From the NCBI GenBank assembly GCA_019116805.1, contig DXAV01000008.1, positions 1 through 64,000 on the forward strand: 64,000 nt of DNA, in the 5' to 3' direction. The position numbers and the translations under genes were made by a program. The notes beneath the pieces were generated by a model, which saw only the letters and a list, made by a program, of their open reading frames with translations, did no database searches and was not told the origin of the DNA. The DNA comes from Candidatus Bacteroides merdavium. GTDB taxonomy: Bacteria > Bacteroidota > Bacteroidia > Bacteroidales > Bacteroidaceae. Positions 53,910-61,062 of this stretch are shown here, in pieces. Every line of letters begins with the position of its first letter. Within the stretch, counting starts at the first letter, position 1.

Positions 53910-55256
53910 TCAACGCACATCCCTGCCGCGGATGAAGCCGGCCACGTCGTCGGCCACATAGGAGGGCACGGGGCGCGCCTCGTTATACTCCAGCGGGGTG
54001 GACTTGCCCTTGCCTTCCTGCAACAAGTGGTTCAGCGCGGGATAGGACTTGAGCTGCGCCTTGGGGCGGGCGAGCAGGCCCATGAGCCACAGGCCGTAGT
54101 CCTGCATGGTGACCTGATAGTCGCGCTCGCCCTGAAGCACCAGCACGGGGCAGGTCAGCGCCGAGGCCACAGGCACGGCCTGGTAGGTTTGCAGAAACTC
54201 CCAATACTCCTTGGGCAGGCCCAGCGGCAGGGCGATGGTGTCGCTGAAGGCGGGCGTGCCCAGGCGCTTCACGTTGGCCACCTGCCGCTTCAGCTCGTCC
54301 AGCCGGGCGCGCGTCTGTTCGCTGGGCGTGGTCAGCGAGGCGAGGTATTCCGACTGCTCCACCAGCAGGTCCTCGAAGGGACGGGCAGGTCCGGCCACGA
54401 TGATGATGCCCGCCACCTGCGGCGAACGCCTGGCGATGCGCGGGGCCATCATGCCGCCCTGGCTGTGGCCGAGGACAAAGACGCTGTCGGCCGCCACCTG
54501 AGGCAGGCCGGCTGCCAGACGGACGGCCGAGAGGGCATCGTCCACCGTCTCCACATCCATGTCCAGCCGGCGGCCCTGCGGCACGCAATCGGCGCCATAG
54601 ACCTTCGTGCGCTTGTCGTAGCGCAGGGTGGCAATGCCGCGGTAGGCCAGCAGCCAGGCCAGGTCGCGGAAGGGCTTGTTGGGGCCTATGGTCTCGTCGC
54701 GATCGTTGGGGCCCGAGCCGTGTACCAGCACCACGCAGGGCACCCGTCGGCCCTCCTCCTTCAGGCGGGGCAGGGTCAGCGTGGCAGGTAGGCGGTAGCC
54801 GTCGGTCACCACCACCGTGTCGCGCTCTTCCATCAGCGTGCGGTCGAAGGCCACGGCAGGCGCTCCGGCAGGTTCGGGGGCGGGCACCACGCGAATGGTG
54901 TTCAGCCGCCCGTCGGCGTCGAAGCCCACAAGCAGGCGCAGGCGGTAGCGTTCGAAGGTCAGGTCGCGGCGACACAGTTCCACGCCCTGCACGGCTTCCT
55001 GCGTCCAGACTCCGGCCGACTGCAATGCGCCGAACTGGCCCGTCAGCTGGCGCCAGGTGTCGGCAAACACGGCGGGCGAGAGCTGTCGCTGCGCCTCGTC
55101 GTTGAGGGCGGCATAGATGCTGTCGCCACGGCCTTCGATGAGGTGTTCATAGATGCGCTCCGCACGTGCCTGACGGTCGTCCTGCGCCCATCCCTTCAAG
55201 GCACTTCCGCCCAGCAGGAAGAACAAAGCCCATATCGTAATCTTCCAATTATCCAT
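53910..55256 (-). CDS. Alpha/beta hydrolase with N-terminal DUF3887-like domain
   Basis: VLVHGSGPNDRDETIGPNKPFRDLA; VLGHSQGGMMAPRIA. Confidence 0.9.
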   Translation of the reverse strand: MDNWKITIWALFFLLGGSALKGWAQDDRQARAERIYEHLIEGRGDSIYAALNDEAQRQLSPAVFADTWRQLTGQFGALQSAGVWTQEAVQGVELCRRDLTFERYRLRLLVGFDADGRLNTIRVVPAPEPAGAPAVAFDRTLMEERDTVVVTDGYRLPATLTLPRLKEEGRRVPCVVLVHGSGPNDRDETIGPNKPFRDLAWLLAYRGIATLRYDKRTKVYGADCVPQGRRLDMDVETVDDALSAVRLAAGLPQVAADSVFVLGHSQGGMMAPRIARRSPQVAGIIIVAGPARPFEDLLVEQSEYLASLTTPSEQTRARLDELKRQVANVKRLGTPAFSDTIALPLGLPKEYWEFLQTYQAVPVASALTCPVLVLQGERDYQVTMQDYGLWLMGLLARPKAQLKSYPALNHLLQEGKGKSTPLEYNEARPVPSYVADDVAGFIRGRDVR

Positions 55257-55269
55257 TGTCCATTATCAA

Positions 55270-55782
55270 TTATCCATTGTTCTTCAGCCAACGGCTGTAA
55301 TAGTAATAATCCAGGTAATACTTCAGCGCGCCGCCCACAAAGGCCAGCGCCACAATCATCAGGTTGCGCAGGCGGAAGCGGTCGGCCCATACGGCAGCGT
55401 CGAAGCCTTCCACCGCCCACTCTATCAGGTCGAAAACGAACGTCACCCCTACCACCACCAGCGCATACACGCCGCCGGTGAAGAGCACGAAGAGGGGCTT
55501 GTTGCGCAGGTAGAGGCGGTGCGTCAGGTTGCCCACCACGATGTGTCTCGTCTCCACACGCGGACGGCAATAGAGGTAGACGCCCCGCAAGGCGATGAGC
55601 ACGCCCACCAGCATGAAGACGGCAATCATCCAAAGGTTGCCCTTGTCCATCAGCAGCCAGTTGCGGCCGAGTATCCAGGCAAACACCAGCGCGATGAACA
55701 CCCCCACTCCGATGCCGGAGCCGGCCGTCAGGCGGGTGCTGCACTGATAGACCACTTCACTGCCTTGATTCAATCCGAACAT
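55270..55782 (-). CDS. Membrane protein of unknown function
   Basis: Multi-TM, 170 aa, between SPFH and hydrolase genes. Confidence 0.65.
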   Translation of the reverse strand: MFGLNQGSEVVYQCSTRLTAGSGIGVGVFIALVFAWILGRNWLLMDKGNLWMIAVFMLVGVLIALRGVYLYCRPRVETRHIVVGNLTHRLYLRNKPLFVLFTGGVYALVVVGVTFVFDLIEWAVEGFDAAVWADRFRLRNLMIVALAFVGGALKYYLDYYYYSRWLKNNG

Positions 55783-55805
55783 AACGCTTCCGTGTTTTTA
55801 AGCCA

Positions 55806-56771
55806 TCAATGGTTCAGCGTCCCCGTATTCACCACCGGCTGGGCAGCCTCGTCGGCACAGAGCACCACGAGCAGGTTGCTCACCATGGCCGCCTTCTTCT
55901 CTTCGTCCAGCTCCACGATTTCGTCCTTCGAGAGCTTGTCCAACGCCATGTGGACCATCGACACGGCCCCTTCGACAATCTTCTCGCGGGCACTGATGAT
56001 GGCCGACGCCTGCTGGCGGCGCAACATCACGGCCGCAATCTCGGGCGCATAGGCCAGGTAGTTGATGCGGGCTTCCAGCACCTCTATGCCCGCCATGGCC
56101 AGGCGCTCGTTGAGCTTCTGCTCCAGCTGGTCGTTGATCTCCTCGCCGCCCGAGCGGAGGGTCAGTTCGCCGTCGGCACCCTCGTTGTCGTCGTAGGCAT
56201 ACTGCCCGGCCACCTGGCGCAGGGCGGCGTCGCTCTGAATCTTCACGAAGTTCTCGAAAGCGTTCATGCGGTTGGCCACGGCGTTGCCCATGTTCACCGC
56301 CTTGCCGTCGCTCGACGTGGTGCCCGCGCTGGCCATGGTCTGCGAGTCGATTTCGAACATCGCCTTGTACGTGTCCTTCAGCCGCCACACCAGCACGAGG
56401 CCTATCAGCACGGGGTTGCCTATCTTGTCGTTCACCTTGATGGGCTCCACGTCGAGGTTGCGCGCACGCAGCGACAGCTTCTTGGCCTCCATGAAGGGGT
56501 TCACCCAGAAGAAGCCCGTCTCGCGGAACGTGCCCTTATACCGGCCGAAGAACACCATGGCCCGTGCCTCGTTGGGCTCCAGCATCATGTAGCCACAGTT
56601 CAGGATGATCCACAGCACGGACATCACCGTTCCCAGCACATAGAGCAGCACGCCACCCGTCACGAAGCACCACACCGTGGCACCCGCCCATACAAACAGA
56701 AAGAGGAACAGGGCCAGGAAGCCGTTCATCTTAAAACCTTTGAAATTCATTTCCTTTGTTTCCATACGCAT
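55806..56771 (-). CDS. SPFH/Band 7 domain protein
   Basis: LEPNEARAMVFFGRYKGTFRETGFFWVNPF; LAMAGIEVLEARINYLAYAPEIAAVML. Confidence 0.95.
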   Translation of the reverse strand: MRMETKEMNFKGFKMNGFLALFLFLFVWAGATVWCFVTGGVLLYVLGTVMSVLWIILNCGYMMLEPNEARAMVFFGRYKGTFRETGFFWVNPFMEAKKLSLRARNLDVEPIKVNDKIGNPVLIGLVLVWRLKDTYKAMFEIDSQTMASAGTTSSDGKAVNMGNAVANRMNAFENFVKIQSDAALRQVAGQYAYDDNEGADGELTLRSGGEEINDQLEQKLNERLAMAGIEVLEARINYLAYAPEIAAVMLRRQQASAIISAREKIVEGAVSMVHMALDKLSKDEIVELDEEKKAAMVSNLLVVLCADEAAQPVVNTGTLNH

Positions 56772-56782
56772 TGTTTTAAAGT

Positions 56783-56799
56783 GATATCATTTTGATATC
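56783..56799. promoter_or_regulatory. Operator-like palindrome GATATCA-N3-TGATATC just downstream of the SPFH-operon -7 box
   Basis: Minus strand: TATCTTTGC GATATCAAAATGATATC. Confidence 0.5.
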
Positions 56800-56964
56800 G
56801 CAAAGATATGTATTCCGTTTGAATTATGCAAGAGTCGCAATGCTGTTTTTTTCGGGCACATCACGAAAACAGGGAAGTGCCCACTTGTTCAGAATACTGG
56901 GTGTCCAGCCACTCAGGAAATAAGACGTTTTTGCGTCTATTGATATCAGGAAAAGACAATCACC

Positions 56965-57149
56965 CGTTACGTTACAGTTGTTACAGTAACAAAAATCGAA
57001 AAACGACTTTCAGTCTCCCAAAAAGGGAAGTGTTAAATATTTTAATACTATATATATTATATATATAATATATATAGTATTAATTTTCTGATGACATTTT
57101 TAAAATCTGAAAAACGACTATTTTTTACTGTAACAACTGTAACGTAACG
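56965..57149. repeat. Nested cruciform element: 25-bp perfect outer inverted repeat around a 42-bp perfect AT palindrome
   Basis: CGTTACGTTACAGTTGTTACAGTAA 56965-56989 / TTACTGTAACAACTGTAACGTAACG 57125-57149; inner palindrome 57042-57083. Confidence 0.9.
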
Positions 57150-57303
57150 CCTCTTATTCCCTTTCATCACCCGGGCAAGCAGACCATTCCTGCTTTTTTA
57201 GAGTCACACAACCTGATCAATAGACATCCATCCCGTGCAAACACCTCCCCAACCCAAGCGGCAGCACATAAAAATCCATAGAACGCACGCGCCGTGCCGA
57301 AAA

Positions 57304-57345
57304 CAGAAAGCACCGTTTTCCACACACGAAAGCGCCGTTTCCCAC
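57304..57345. repeat. 22-bp-period palindrome pair GAAAGCRCCGTTTTC
   Basis: Unit starts 57306 and 57328. Confidence 0.65.
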
Positions 57346-57633
57346 CCTGTAAATCAATGCGTTATTTTTATTAACACAAAGCACTCGCTTTGTTAACAGA
57401 CTTTTAGAAATTACAGATGCTACGTTTTTGGCCGCCCCACAGAAAGCCCCTATATTTGCATCAGCAGGCAGGGAAAGGGATATCATAACAAACAGGAAGG
57501 AACACACCGGCGAGAGGCCGGAAGTCGCCATCAGAAAGCAGAAAAAACGAAGAAACAGGCCGTCCGGAGCTACACGACTGAAAAAGAAGCAGAAATAATT
57601 GCGGAAACATTTGCACGTTTCGCGCGAAAGCAG

Positions 57634-57641
57634 TAATTTTG
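57634..57641 (+). promoter_or_regulatory. -7 box TAATTTTG for rplU
   Basis: cagtaattttgtgcc. Confidence 0.55.
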
Positions 57642-57659
57642 TGCCCGATTATTCCGAAA

Positions 57660-57701
57660 CGGGTCCAACAAAGAGATTTCCAAGTGATTGGAGACCACCC
57701 G
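57660..57701 (+). promoter_or_regulatory. Structured 5' leader of rplU (outer stem CGGGU/ACCCG, inner hairpin UCCAA-GUGA-UUGGA)
   Basis: CGGGTccaacaaagagatTTCCAAGTGATTGGAgaccACCCG. Confidence 0.45.
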
Positions 57702-57733
57702 ACGGAGCTAACTTATATAGTTTATTTATAAGC

Positions 57734-58051
57734 ATGTACGCAATTGTAGAAATCAACGGCCAGCAGTTCAAAGCAGAAGCTGGCAAGAAGCTGTTCGTTC
57801 ACCACATCCAGAACGCAGAAGCTGGTGCGACAGTAGAATTTGAGAAAGTTCTTTTGGTGGACAAAGACGGAAACGTAACCGTAGGCCTGCCGACGGTAGA
57901 AGGCGCAAAGGTAGTTTGCGAAGTGGTATCTCCGCTGGTAAAGGGCGACAAGGTGCTCGTTTTCCACAAGAAGAGAAGAAAAGGTTACCGCAAGCTGAAC
58001 GGTCATCGTCAGCAGTTTACGGAACTGGCAATCAAAGAAGTAGTAGCTTAA
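57734..58051 (+). CDS. rplU: 50S ribosomal protein L21
   Basis: [24 protein letters not shown]. Confidence 0.98.
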
Positions 58052-58074
58052 TCAAATTAAAACAGTAAGAAGAA

Positions 58075-58344
58075 ATGGCACATAAAAAAGGTGTTGGTAG
58101 TTCTAAGAACGGCCGTGAATCAGCAAGTAAGAGATTAGGCGTTAAGATATTCGGTGGCGAAGCTTGCAAGGCAGGCAACATCATCGTTCGTCAGAGAGGT
58201 ACAGAATTCCATCCGGGCAACAACATCGGCATGGGCAGTGACCACACTCTCTACGCCTTGGTAGATGGAACAGTACAGTTCAAAGTAGGTCGCGAAGACA
58301 GACGCTATGTATCTGTTATCCCGGCTGAAAGCGCAGAAGCATAA
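58075..58344 (+). CDS. rpmA: 50S ribosomal protein L27
   Basis: [24 protein letters not shown]. Confidence 0.98.
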
Positions 58345-58369
58345 TAGTTTCCCGACAACATAAAGACAA

Positions 58370-58408
58370 GGGGTGCAATCGAAAAAACGGTTGCATCCCT
58401 TTCTTTTT
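58370..58408 (+). terminator. Rho-independent terminator after rpmA
   Basis: GGGGTGCAATCgaaaaaacGGTTGCATCCCTTTCTTTTT. Confidence 0.85.
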
Positions 58409-58470
58409 AAGAAAGAATAAGTTACCTTTGTCGCACGAAAACAAGAAATAATTCTTAACCGAAACAAGAT

Positions 58471-59745
58471 ATGCTTACCATCAAACAAATCACAGAAAAC
58501 ACAGACGCGGTAGTACGCGGACTGGAGAAGAAGCATTTCAAGAATGCCAAGGAAGCCATCGAACAGGTGCTGGCTCTGAACAACAAGCGTAGAAGTACAC
58601 AGACTTTACTCGATAACAACCTCGCCGAGGTGAACACACTGTCCAAGTCCATCGGCCAGCTGATGAAGGAAGGCAAGAAGGACGAAGCCGAAACCGCCAA
58701 GAGCCGCGTGGCCGAGCTGAAGGAGGCCAACAAGACCCTGCAGGCAGACATGGACCAGGCCGCACAGGACCTGCAACAGCTGCTCTACACCATCCCCAAC
58801 GTGCCCTACGACGAAGTGCCCGAAGGCGCTACGGCCGAGGACAACCTCGTGGTGAAGATGGGCGGTATGGAAACCGAGCTGCCCAAGGACGCCCTGCCCC
58901 ACTGGGAACTGGCGAAGAAATATGACATCATCGACTTCGACCTGGGCGTGAAGATCACCGGCGCAGGTTTCCCCGTCTATAAAGGCAAGGGTGCCCGCCT
59001 GCAACGCGCCCTCATCAACTTCTTCCTCGACGAGGCACGCGCTTCGGGCTACACCGAAATCATGCCGCCTACGGTGGTGAACGCCGCTTCGGGCTACGGC
59101 ACAGGTCAGCTGCCCGACAAGGAAGGCCAGATGTACCATTGCGAGGTGGACGACCTCTACCTCATCCCCACGGCCGAAGTGCCCGTGACGAACATCTACC
59201 GCGACGTCATCCTCGACGAGAAGCAGCTCCCCATCAAGAACTGCGCCTACACCGAGTGCTTCCGCCGCGAGGCAGGTTCCTACGGCAAGGACGTACGTGG
59301 CCTGAACCGCCTGCACGAGTTCTCGAAAGTGGAGCTGGTGCGCATCGACAAGCCCGAACACTCCAAGCAGAGCCATCAGGAGATGCTTGACCACGTGGAA
59401 GGCCTGCTCCAGAAGCTGGAATTGCCCTACCGCATCCTGCGCCTCTGTGGCGGCGACATGAGCTTCACGGCTGCCATCTGCTACGACTTCGAGGTGTATA
59501 GCGAAGCACAGAAACGCTGGCTGGAGGTGAGCTCCGTGTCCAACTTCGACACCTATCAGGCCAACCGCCTGAAGTGCCGCTACCGCACGGCAGAGAAGAA
59601 GACCGAGCTTTGCCACACGCTGAACGGCTCCGCACTGGCCCTGCCGCGCATCGTGGCCGCCCTGCTGGAGAACAACCAGACACCCGAAGGCATCCGCATC
59701 CCCAAGGCACTGGTGCCTTACTGCGGCTTCGACATCATTGATTGA
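58471..59745 (+). CDS. serS: Serine--tRNA ligase
   Basis: YTECFRREAGSYGKDVRGLNRLHEFSKVE. Confidence 0.98.
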   Translation: MLTIKQITENTDAVVRGLEKKHFKNAKEAIEQVLALNNKRRSTQTLLDNNLAEVNTLSKSIGQLMKEGKKDEAETAKSRVAELKEANKTLQADMDQAAQDLQQLLYTIPNVPYDEVPEGATAEDNLVVKMGGMETELPKDALPHWELAKKYDIIDFDLGVKITGAGFPVYKGKGARLQRALINFFLDEARASGYTEIMPPTVVNAASGYGTGQLPDKEGQMYHCEVDDLYLIPTAEVPVTNIYRDVILDEKQLPIKNCAYTECFRREAGSYGKDVRGLNRLHEFSKVELVRIDKPEHSKQSHQEMLDHVEGLLQKLELPYRILRLCGGDMSFTAAICYDFEVYSEAQKRWLEVSSVSNFDTYQANRLKCRYRTAEKKTELCHTLNGSALALPRIVAALLENNQTPEGIRIPKALVPYCGFDIID

Positions 59746-59746
59746 A

Positions 59747-59825
59747 GATGAAGAATTGAAAATTGAAAATGGAGGAATACACGCATTCTCCATTTTCAAT
59801 TTTTCGATTATCAATTCAATAAATT
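59747..59825. repeat. Heptad (ATTGAAA) inverted-repeat hairpin
   Basis: gaattgaaaattgaaaatgga ... tctccattttcaatttttcgattatcaattcaat. Confidence 0.75.
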
Positions 59826-59850
59826 TCTAACCCCAATAATCTATCTCATC

Positions 59851-61062
59851 ATGAATGAAAAAAACAAAAGTTTCGCATTGCCGCTGACATTCATCGGCAT
59901 CATGTTCTTTGCCATCGGCTTCGCGCTGGGCATCAACTCACTGCTTGTACCCGTTCTGCAAGGCTCGCTGGGCATCTCGAACGCCGCTTCCTACCTGATT
60001 ATCGCCGCGACGTTCATCCCCTTCCTCGTATTCGGCTATCCCGCCGGACTGACCATCAAGGCCATCGGCTACAAGCGCACGATGTCGCTGTCGTTCATCA
60101 TCTTTGCCGTGGCCTTCTACCTGTTCATCCTCTCGGCCGACTACAAGAGCTTCAGCCTCTTCCTGCTGGCTTCGTTCATCAGCGGTGCGGCCAACGCCTA
60201 CCTGCAGGCATCCGTCAACCCCTACATCACCATCCTGGGCCCGCTGGAGAGTGCCGCCAAGCGCATCAGCATCATGGGCATCTGCAACAAGCTGGCCTGG
60301 CCCATCCCGTCCATCTTCATCGTGTGGCTGCTGGGCAAGGACGTGAACCTCATCGGCATTGAAGACCTGAACAAGCCGTTCGTCATCATCATCTGCGCCT
60401 TTGTGGCCCTGGGCATCATGGCTTTCTTCGCTCCCCTGCCCGAGGTGAAGGCTGAGGGTGAAGACGAGGACGACACCACTTCCAGCGCATCGAGCTATGC
60501 CGCCGGCAAGACGTCCGTCTTCCAGTTCCCCCACCTGCTGCTGGGTTGCCTCGCCCTGTTCCTCTACGTGGGCGTTGAAACCGTTTCACTCGGAACACTC
60601 GTCGATTATGCCAACTCGCTGGGCCTGCCGGGTGCCGCCAACTACGCCTGGATTGCCCCCATCGGCATCGTCATCGGCTATATCTGCGGCATCATCTTCA
60701 TCCCCAAATACATCAGCCAGGCCGCCGCGCTGAAGGTGTGCTCCATCCTGGCTGTCATCGGCTCGCTGCTCGTCGTGCTGACGCCGCAGGAGATTTCCAT
60801 CTACTTCATCTCGTTCATGGCACTGGGATGCTCGCTGATGTGGCCCGCCCTGTGGCCGCTGGCCATGGCCGACCTGGGCAAGTTTACCAAGGCCGGTTCG
60901 TCGCTGCTCATCATGGCCATGTTCGGCGGTGCCGTCATCCCCACCCTCTACGGATGGCTGAAGGACGTGACCAGCCCCCAGCAGGCCTACTGGCTCTGCC
61001 TGCCGTGCTTCCTGTTCATCCTCTATTATGGAGTGTCAGGATATAAGATCCGCACGAAGTAA
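59851..61062 (+). CDS. Sugar MFS transporter (FucP/GluP-like)
   Basis: FALGINSLLVPVLQGSLGISNAASYLIIAATFIPFLVFGYPAG. Confidence 0.85.
   Translation: MNEKNKSFALPLTFIGIMFFAIGFALGINSLLVPVLQGSLGISNAASYLIIAATFIPFLVFGYPAGLTIKAIGYKRTMSLSFIIFAVAFYLFILSADYKSFSLFLLASFISGAANAYLQASVNPYITILGPLESAAKRISIMGICNKLAWPIPSIFIVWLLGKDVNLIGIEDLNKPFVIIICAFVALGIMAFFAPLPEVKAEGEDEDDTTSSASSYAAGKTSVFQFPHLLLGCLALFLYVGVETVSLGTLVDYANSLGLPGAANYAWIAPIGIVIGYICGIIFIPKYISQAAALKVCSILAVIGSLLVVLTPQEISIYFISFMALGCSLMWPALWPLAMADLGKFTKAGSSLLIMAMFGGAVIPTLYGWLKDVTSPQQAYWLCLPCFLFILYYGVSGYKIRTK

What the first reader, a model, noticed from the sequence alone, without database searches (positions are those of the whole stretch)
56965..57149. 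Nearly concentric nested palindrome (185 bp) between the SPFH operon and rplU
Outer perfect 25-bp inverted repeat CGTTACGTTACAGTTGTTACAGTAA encloses a perfect 42-bp AT-only palindrome core (TTAATACTATATATATTATATATATAATATATATAGTATTAA, 57042-57083). The two centres are only ~5 bp apart (57057 vs 57062.5), and AAAAACGACT is directly repeated on both sides. The arms are packed with GTTAC/GTAAC. Possible cruciform-forming regulatory, replication/recombination or protein-nucleating element.
Basis: partly seen in the sequence, partly recalled or inferred. Interest (0 to 1): 0.72.

Follow-up and report, generated by a model that had tools for sequence, protein, structure and literature searches.

The report
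Nested palindromes with co-evolving arms
A 185-bp palindrome-within-a-palindrome beside a ribosomal protein gene proves to be one copy of a repeated DNA element of Bacteroides-related gut bacteria, whose outer arms change sequence from place to place yet stay able to pair with each other, and which often stands in front of genes for a histone-like DNA-binding protein.

Summary
In detail: outer 29-nt arms (28 pairs) and a perfect 42-bp, almost pure A/T palindrome, far beyond chance. It is not strain-specific. The same genome holds at least six more copies; 42 were compared across the genus. All share one plan: arms of three to five short tandem units (often 7 bp), an AT palindrome, inverted arms. 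Arm sequences differ between copies, even at the same locus in different species, but changes are mirrored in the partner arm (9:1 and 10:0 compensated against one-sided columns at the two clearest loci; 0 of 20,000 permutations). In its fullest form the palindrome is the 5' part of a ~1.4-kb dispersed cassette: palindrome, promoter block (TTTG-N20-TAnnTTTG), HU-HIG DNA-binding gene, 'smalltalk' gene. It precedes two related HU-HIG clades and none of 28 distant HU-HIGs. The window copy is a solo unit (palindrome plus promoter block) between SPFH and rplU. Flank exchanges between species map to its left edge. Best mechanism (inferred): a DNA cruciform bound by HU-HIG, acting on divergent promoters, with arms perhaps also homogenised by template switching. 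Related to the hupA and P. gingivalis HU precedents; this architecture was not found described in the literature searched.

The parts
56965..56993 (+). Left outer arm, tandem GTTAC(A) units: CGTTACGTTACAGTTGTTACAGTAACAAA
   Evidence: the repeat finder; arms pair with their own partner far better than with others across 42 elements
57121..57149 (+). Right outer arm, inverted copy (28 of 29 pairs)
57042..57083 (.). Perfect 42-bp core palindrome, A/T except one C-G pair (core type 1, TTAATACTATATATA...)
   Evidence: same core type in G000 C49/C52/C7 and in relatives
57029..57056 (+). Asymmetric conserved core flank AGTGTTAAATATTTTAATACTATATATA, which gives the element a direction
   Evidence: pattern scans with no control matches; alignments
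56991..57008 (+). Direct repeat copy 1 (AAAAATCGAAAAACGACT)
   Evidence: not conserved in other copies
57102..57119 (+). Direct repeat copy 2 (AAAATCTGAAAAACGACT)
57362..57405 (+). Conserved GTTAA-box region of the promoter block (TTATTTTTATTAACAC..TTTGTTAACAGACTTT)
   Evidence: alignment of non-orthologous copies; block search
57427..57458 (+). Promoter of the unit, TTTG-N20-TATATTTG (Bacteroides -33/-7 type), facing rplU
   Evidence: 19 of 21 blocks keep this arrangement; consensus as in PMC7366714
57610..57641 (+). Native rplU promoter-like site TTTG-N20-TAATTTTG, right of the unit
   Evidence: sequence; present in the unit-free G024 locus
55806..56759 (-). Left neighbour: SPFH/Band-7 gene
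   Evidence: PF01145 E=3e-19
57734..58051 (+). Right neighbour: rplU (ribosomal protein L21)
   Evidence: TIGR00061 E=3e-29

Best explanation
The feature is a solo copy of a dispersed, directional DNA element of Bacteroides-related bacteria. In its complete form the element is the 5' end of a ~1.4-kb cassette: nested palindrome, GTTAA-box promoter block, an HU-HIG (HU/IHF-fold) DNA-binding gene, then smalltalk. SHOWN: multi-copy and dispersed; architecture and pairing conserved while arm sequence is not; association with HU-HIG/smalltalk; preference for divergent intergenic regions; flank exchange at its left edge; no sign that it acts as RNA. INFERRED: under the negative supercoiling between divergent promoters the AT core extrudes first and nucleates a larger cruciform closed by the outer arms; the HU-HIG protein, whose superfamily favours four-way junctions and distorted DNA, binds it, autoregulates its own promoter about 250 bp away, and in trans affects promoters next to solo copies such as the one between SPFH and rplU. 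Arm pairing is kept by selection for the structure, helped by template-switch repair between arms and slippage among tandem units, which would explain why whole arms change in concert.
For: Copies in the same genome and across the genus. Compensated versus one-sided columns at orthologous loci: CoA-disulfide-reductase locus 9 vs 1, SPFH locus 10 vs 0, hisS 6 vs 2. Own-arm pairing over 42 elements: mean score 54.9 vs 19.2, 0 of 20,000 permutations. Promoter spacing fixed in 19 of 21 blocks. HU-HIG PF18291 E=1e-18; smalltalk NF033879 E=7e-12. Full nested palindrome upstream of 9 of 11 clade-1 HU-HIG starts and 8 of 14 clade-2 genes at 69% identity or more (three others keep only the AT core), 0 of 28 distant HU-HIGs (Fisher p about 1.6e-8, computed with 17/24 vs 0/28). 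Divergent context 22 of 38 vs 18 of 61 element-free gaps, p = 0.006. G-T vs A-C mismatches 9 vs 15, no RNA-type bias. Junctions at the left arm edge. Precedents: E. coli hupA promoter inverted repeat, and P. gingivalis HU PG0121 binding DNA with a 77-bp inverted repeat and Holliday-junction DNA (PMC3969353).
Against: No binding, extrusion or expression data. Many copies (mltF-like, trmD, rplS, hisS loci) have no HU-HIG gene beside them, and some HU-HIG genes of the two clades lack a full nested palindrome. Template switching or ectopic conversion alone could keep the arms paired without selection. Slow extrusion is a known objection to cruciforms in vivo. The unit is absent from the other rplU loci examined, so it is not essential there.
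Confidence: 0.45

Rival explanations
1. A foldback-like selfish repeat without host function: it spreads with the HU-HIG cassette or as a non-autonomous unit, arms stay paired only because template switching, slippage and conversion between copies homogenise them, and solo copies are remnants.
For: Three 91-95% identical ~560-bp copies at three loci in G024; cassette dispersed at many loci; presence/absence at rplU; template switching is a documented way to make and keep perfect stems (PMC8794818); tandem-unit arms resemble foldback/Galileo terminal repeats (PMC4168063).
Against: Retained at the same loci in several species (rplS locus in four genomes, mltF-like locus in three), at some of them while the arms were rewritten; asymmetric conserved core flank and promoter spacing; no transposase, common terminal sequence or target duplication found.
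Confidence: 0.33
2. A folded-DNA recombination site (working like an integron attC site), in which structure rather than sequence is recognised and through which flanks are exchanged.
For: Left flanks are swapped at the palindrome edge: G000 has radSAM-U-DPP and hisS-U-sulfatase, G093 radSAM-U-sulfatase, G007 hisS-U-DPP, with breakpoints within about 150 bp left of, or inside, the left arm.
Against: No linked recombinase gene noticed, no constant crossover motif; breakage of a long palindrome followed by repair, or homologous recombination between units, would give the same junctions.
Confidence: 0.08
3. An RNA hairpin: leader, terminator or small RNA.
For: RNA fold z = -13.2.
Against: No Rfam match; it lies between divergent promoters, outside the predicted transcripts; only 3 of 38 copies in convergent context; no excess of G-U over A-C mismatches.
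Confidence: 0.07
4. An invertible promoter segment of the Bacteroides phase-variation kind.
For: 25-29-bp inverted repeats in a genus-group known for invertible promoters.
Against: The promoter lies outside the repeats, and the core keeps one orientation relative to the promoter block in the copies that have both.
Confidence: 0.03

Closest known systems
[quoted passage not shown]
   Same: Bacteroidales; an HU-fold protein gene linked to a long inverted repeat that could form a cruciform; the protein binds DNA with the repeat and Holliday-junction DNA
   Different: Single locus, classical HU rather than HU-HIG, no nested AT core, no tandem-unit arms, not dispersed, no arm co-variation reported
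E. coli hupA promoter inverted repeat (described in PMC3969353)
   Same: HU gene preceded by an inverted repeat proposed to form a cruciform in negative autoregulation
   Different: That repeat overlaps the promoter; here it lies about 250 bp upstream of the promoter and also occurs without any HU gene
Foldback / Galileo elements of Drosophila (PMC4168063, PMC3573991)
   Same: Inverted arms built of short tandem repeats, dynamic arms, association with chromosomal rearrangements
   Different: Eukaryotic transposons of kilobase size with transposase and target duplications; none found here
HU-HIG-smalltalk-amidase clusters of Bacteroides (PF18291, NF033879)
   Same: HU-HIG followed by a smalltalk-like small ORF
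   Different: These clusters (G000 C50, G142 C171 and others) carry an amidase-like gene and have no nested palindrome
Intergenic TAACTGA heptamer repeats (PMC4679880)
   Same: Intergenic 7-bp tandem units in bacteria including some Bacteroidetes
   Different: Direct repeats of one fixed heptamer near start codons; no inverted partner, no AT core

Membership tests
Nested-palindrome unit of HU-HIG/smalltalk cassettes (defined here) | Tandem-unit inverted arms around an AT palindrome | tested here: met
Nested-palindrome unit of HU-HIG/smalltalk cassettes (defined here) | Downstream GTTAA-box promoter block with TTTG-N20-TAnnTTTG | tested here: met
   window 57362-57458
Nested-palindrome unit of HU-HIG/smalltalk cassettes (defined here) | HU-HIG and smalltalk genes downstream (complete cassette) | tested here: not met
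   no HU-HIG or smalltalk match in window 54001-60000: the window copy is solo
HU/cruciform operator (hupA, PG0121 type) | HU-fold protein binds the inverted repeat | not testable with these tools
   needs EMSA or ChIP
MITE | Common terminal inverted repeats recognised by a transposase, with target-site duplication | tested here: not met
   arms differ between copies; no duplication or shared end seen at four borders
Foldback element | Long inverted repeats made of tandem subrepeats | tested here: met
   architecture only
Foldback element | Transposase-related coding sequence and target-site duplication | tested here: not met
   only HU-HIG and smalltalk in the cassette; no duplication seen
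REP/REPIN | Short (20-40 bp) high-copy palindromes of fixed sequence | tested here: not met
   about 130-240 bp, about 7 copies in the genome, arms variable
Bacteroides invertible promoter | Promoter between the inverted repeats, both orientations seen | tested here: not met
   promoter outside the repeats, constant orientation
Intrinsic terminator | Hairpin downstream of genes followed by a T run | tested here: not met
   22 of 38 in divergent context, 3 of 38 convergent
Known structured RNA (Rfam 15) | Match to a covariance model | tested here: not met
   no match up to E = 1
Integron attC-like folded recombination site | Recombination by a linked or trans integrase at a defined point | not testable with these tools
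   flank exchange seen but no recombinase or crossover point identified

The most novel reading that the evidence does not exclude
A genus-wide system in which HU-HIG proteins recognise DNA by cruciform shape: copy-specific tandem-unit arms act as self-pairing closures whose sequence is free to drift, so that one protein can act on many dispersed cruciform sites that share no arm sequence, linking HU-HIG/smalltalk cassettes, divergent promoters and chromosome rearrangement.
Probability: 0.25. Interest if true: 0.85.

Novelty: new variant of a known kind. Interest (0 to 1): 0.62.

Why it matters
Whether cruciforms have a selected function in living bacteria is a long-standing question, and most cases rest on single loci. 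Here is a natural series of more than 40 copies, with arms rewritten yet still complementary, next to an expanded family of HU-fold DNA-binding proteins of unknown role. That makes shape recognition by HU-HIG, and the opposing claim that template switching alone keeps palindromes paired, both directly testable.

Tried and rejected
Rfam search of the region: nothing. Core pattern in IMG/VR: none; 751-bp region in plasmid and phage collections: none. Core pattern in 393 genomes of the order: three hits outside the own genome, equal to the number of control hits, so core type 1 looks genus-restricted. I first took the absence at other rplU loci as proof of a recent insertion; weakened, because G007 has a unit beside the same SPFH gene with a different right neighbour, so gain, loss and flank exchange cannot be separated at this locus. 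RNA reading tested by G-T versus A-C mismatches: no support. HU-HIG against PDB sequences: no match. A formal pair count on a MAFFT alignment of arm pairs was abandoned because gaps broke the register; replaced by the permutation test.

Full report
OBSERVATION. The sequence is as described. Outer arms 56965-56993 and 57121-57149 pair at 28 of 29 positions across 127 nt; the inner palindrome 57042-57083 is perfect and is A/T except for one C-G pair. Centres differ by 5.5 bp. In shuffles neither feature is approached (outer 26 vs at most 14; core 21 vs at most 9). The folded DNA strand has z = -12.2. The neighbours are an SPFH/Band-7 gene on the left (minus) and rplU on the right (plus).

NOT UNIQUE. 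A whole-genome search with the element found further copies in the same draft genome, and reading them showed the key fact: the core and its left flank AAGTGTTAAATAwTTTAATAy are shared, but the outer arms differ. C49 and C52 have GTTACA-type arms, C7 has ATGACA-type x4, C72 has ATCACAA x3. With two more found later (C15, C98) the genome has at least seven. Named relatives with the core are Mediterranea massiliensis, Caecibacteroides pullorum, Bacteroides ndongoniae and uncultured Bacteroides MAGs; weaker forms occur in about 15 other members of the genus. The genus-wide DNA scans scored at most five candidates per genome, so counts are lower bounds. The core type was not found beyond chance in 393 genomes of the order, nor in IMG/VR, plasmids or phages.

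ANATOMY. The copies have an arm of about three to five short tandem units, often 7 bp of the form RTNACAR where N is the same in most units of one copy (TGACA, TCACA, TTACA), usually ending in ACA(A/G)TT; then a spacer; then an AT palindrome of about 20-58 bp; then spacer and inverted arm. Two common core types are TTAATACTATATATA... and TTTATATTATATATA....

CO-EVOLVING ARMS. In 42 elements the two arms of one copy pair far better with each other than with arms of other copies (mean score 54.9 vs 19.2; none of 20,000 re-pairings reached the observed sum). At orthologous loci the arms were rewritten on both sides: CoA-disulfide-reductase/clostripain locus 9 compensated columns against 1 one-sided; SPFH locus (window vs G007 C19) 10 against 0; hisS 6 against 2; others 4-6 against 2-6. 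The rplS locus, in contrast, kept its ATCACAA arms in four genomes. This could come from selection for pairing, from template switching between arms (a documented process, PMC8794818), from ectopic conversion between copies, or from all three; the data here do not separate them.

A LARGER UNIT. Non-orthologous copies share a second conserved block downstream: TTAGTTTTATTAACACGAA...TTCGTTAACAGATTTT...TTTG-N20-TAnnTTTG. The spacing fits the Bacteroides -33/-7 promoter (consensus in PMC7366714) in 19 of 21 blocks. In the window it lies at 57362-57458, pointing at rplU, whose own promoter-like site (57610-57641) is retained. A search with this block alone found more loci, most of them with a nested palindrome about 250 bp upstream.

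THE CASSETTE. At many loci the block is followed by a ~164-aa HU-HIG protein (PF18291) and a 32-aa smalltalk protein (NF033879), the whole ~1.4 kb being similar between unrelated loci. A nested palindrome precedes 9 of 11 clade-1 HU-HIG starts. As an independent test, a second HU-HIG clade (found through C. pullorum C25) was searched in 160 genomes: of 14 genes at 69% identity or more with at least 400 bp upstream, 8 have a full nested palindrome with new arm and core sequences and three more keep only the AT core; those below 65% have none. Distant HU-HIGs, including HU-HIG-smalltalk-amidase clusters, have none. The window copy has no HU-HIG or smalltalk: it is a solo unit. Palindromes without HU-HIG also sit at housekeeping loci (mltF-like, trmD, rplS, hisS) in several species.

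CONTEXT AND REARRANGEMENT. Copies lie mostly between divergent genes (22 of 38, against 18 of 61 comparable element-free gaps, p = 0.006). Gene calls come from a simple codon-usage script and the baseline gaps from the same fetched loci, so this comparison is rough. Flanks are exchanged at the palindrome: G000 has radSAM-U-DPP and hisS-U-sulfatase, C. pullorum radSAM-U-sulfatase, M. massiliensis hisS-U-DPP; homology on the left ends at or within about 150 bp of the left arm while homology on the right runs from the arm or core through the right gene. At SPFH, window and M. massiliensis agree up to 56834 and then differ, while G024 and C. pullorum keep SPFH and rplU as neighbours without a unit.

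MECHANISM. The element lies outside predicted transcripts and its mismatches show no G-U bias (9 vs 15), so a DNA role is favoured. HU-family proteins favour four-way junctions, bulges and supercoiled DNA, and two precedents link an HU gene to a long inverted repeat: E. coli hupA and P. gingivalis PG0121 (PMC3969353). I therefore propose that the AT core nucleates a cruciform closed by the outer arms, bound by HU-HIG, which tunes its own promoter and, in trans, promoters beside solo copies. Steps shown: structure, its conservation, cassette association, promoter motif. Steps inferred: extrusion, binding, regulation, and that solo copies respond in trans. The main rival is a selfish foldback-like repeat kept paired by template switching.

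NOVELTY. HU genes beside cruciform-capable repeats are known, as are foldback elements and dispersed palindromes. A dispersed, directional nested palindrome with tandem-unit, co-evolving arms tied to HU-HIG/smalltalk was not found in the literature searched; the library lacks most subscription papers, and the paper that defined HU-HIG, known to me only from memory, is not held.

Noticed in passing
window 56865-56961: About 96 bp left of the element is 79% identical to a sequence right of a nested palindrome in G024 (C72, +639 to +734): a second dispersed repeat.
   Followed up: partly
L157:3033, L171:2779, L181:322: Another tandem-unit inverted repeat without AT core, ATTTTTCAGCCGCAGATGACACGGATGACACAGATT and its inverse about 100-145 nt apart, recurs in G142.
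   Followed up: no
L154 and L161, between HU-HIG and smalltalk: Short inverted arms of AATTGAAAATGGAAAATGAAGAATGCGGCC type lie between the HU-HIG and smalltalk genes: the same tandem-arm style inside the cassette.
   Followed up: partly
L009:3066-3191, L138:3624-3736: The unit's own promoter lies a few tens of bases before a DPP-like peptidase gene at two loci, so it seems to have been adopted as that gene's promoter.
   Followed up: partly
L136, L011, window 56945-56962, L108: A motif like CTGAATTCAGGAAAAGAC lies just outside the left arm in some copies and inverted outside the right arm in others, possibly a third nested repeat.
   Followed up: no
L059:1501-1537: A lone arm GCGTTACGTTACAGTTGTTACAGTTATC, nearly identical to the window arm, sits directly before an mnmE-like gene in G166 without core or partner arm.
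   Followed up: no
L098 (G082, rplU upstream): Inverted arms of TTAGTGAGTTAGTGAG units flank a GC-rich hairpin (TAGGGACGCAGCATGGTGCGCC) upstream of rplU.
   Followed up: no
L043 (G033 C122): A further CGTCACAAATCACAAATCACAAT array lies beyond the rplS-locus element, as if half an element were duplicated.
   Followed up: no
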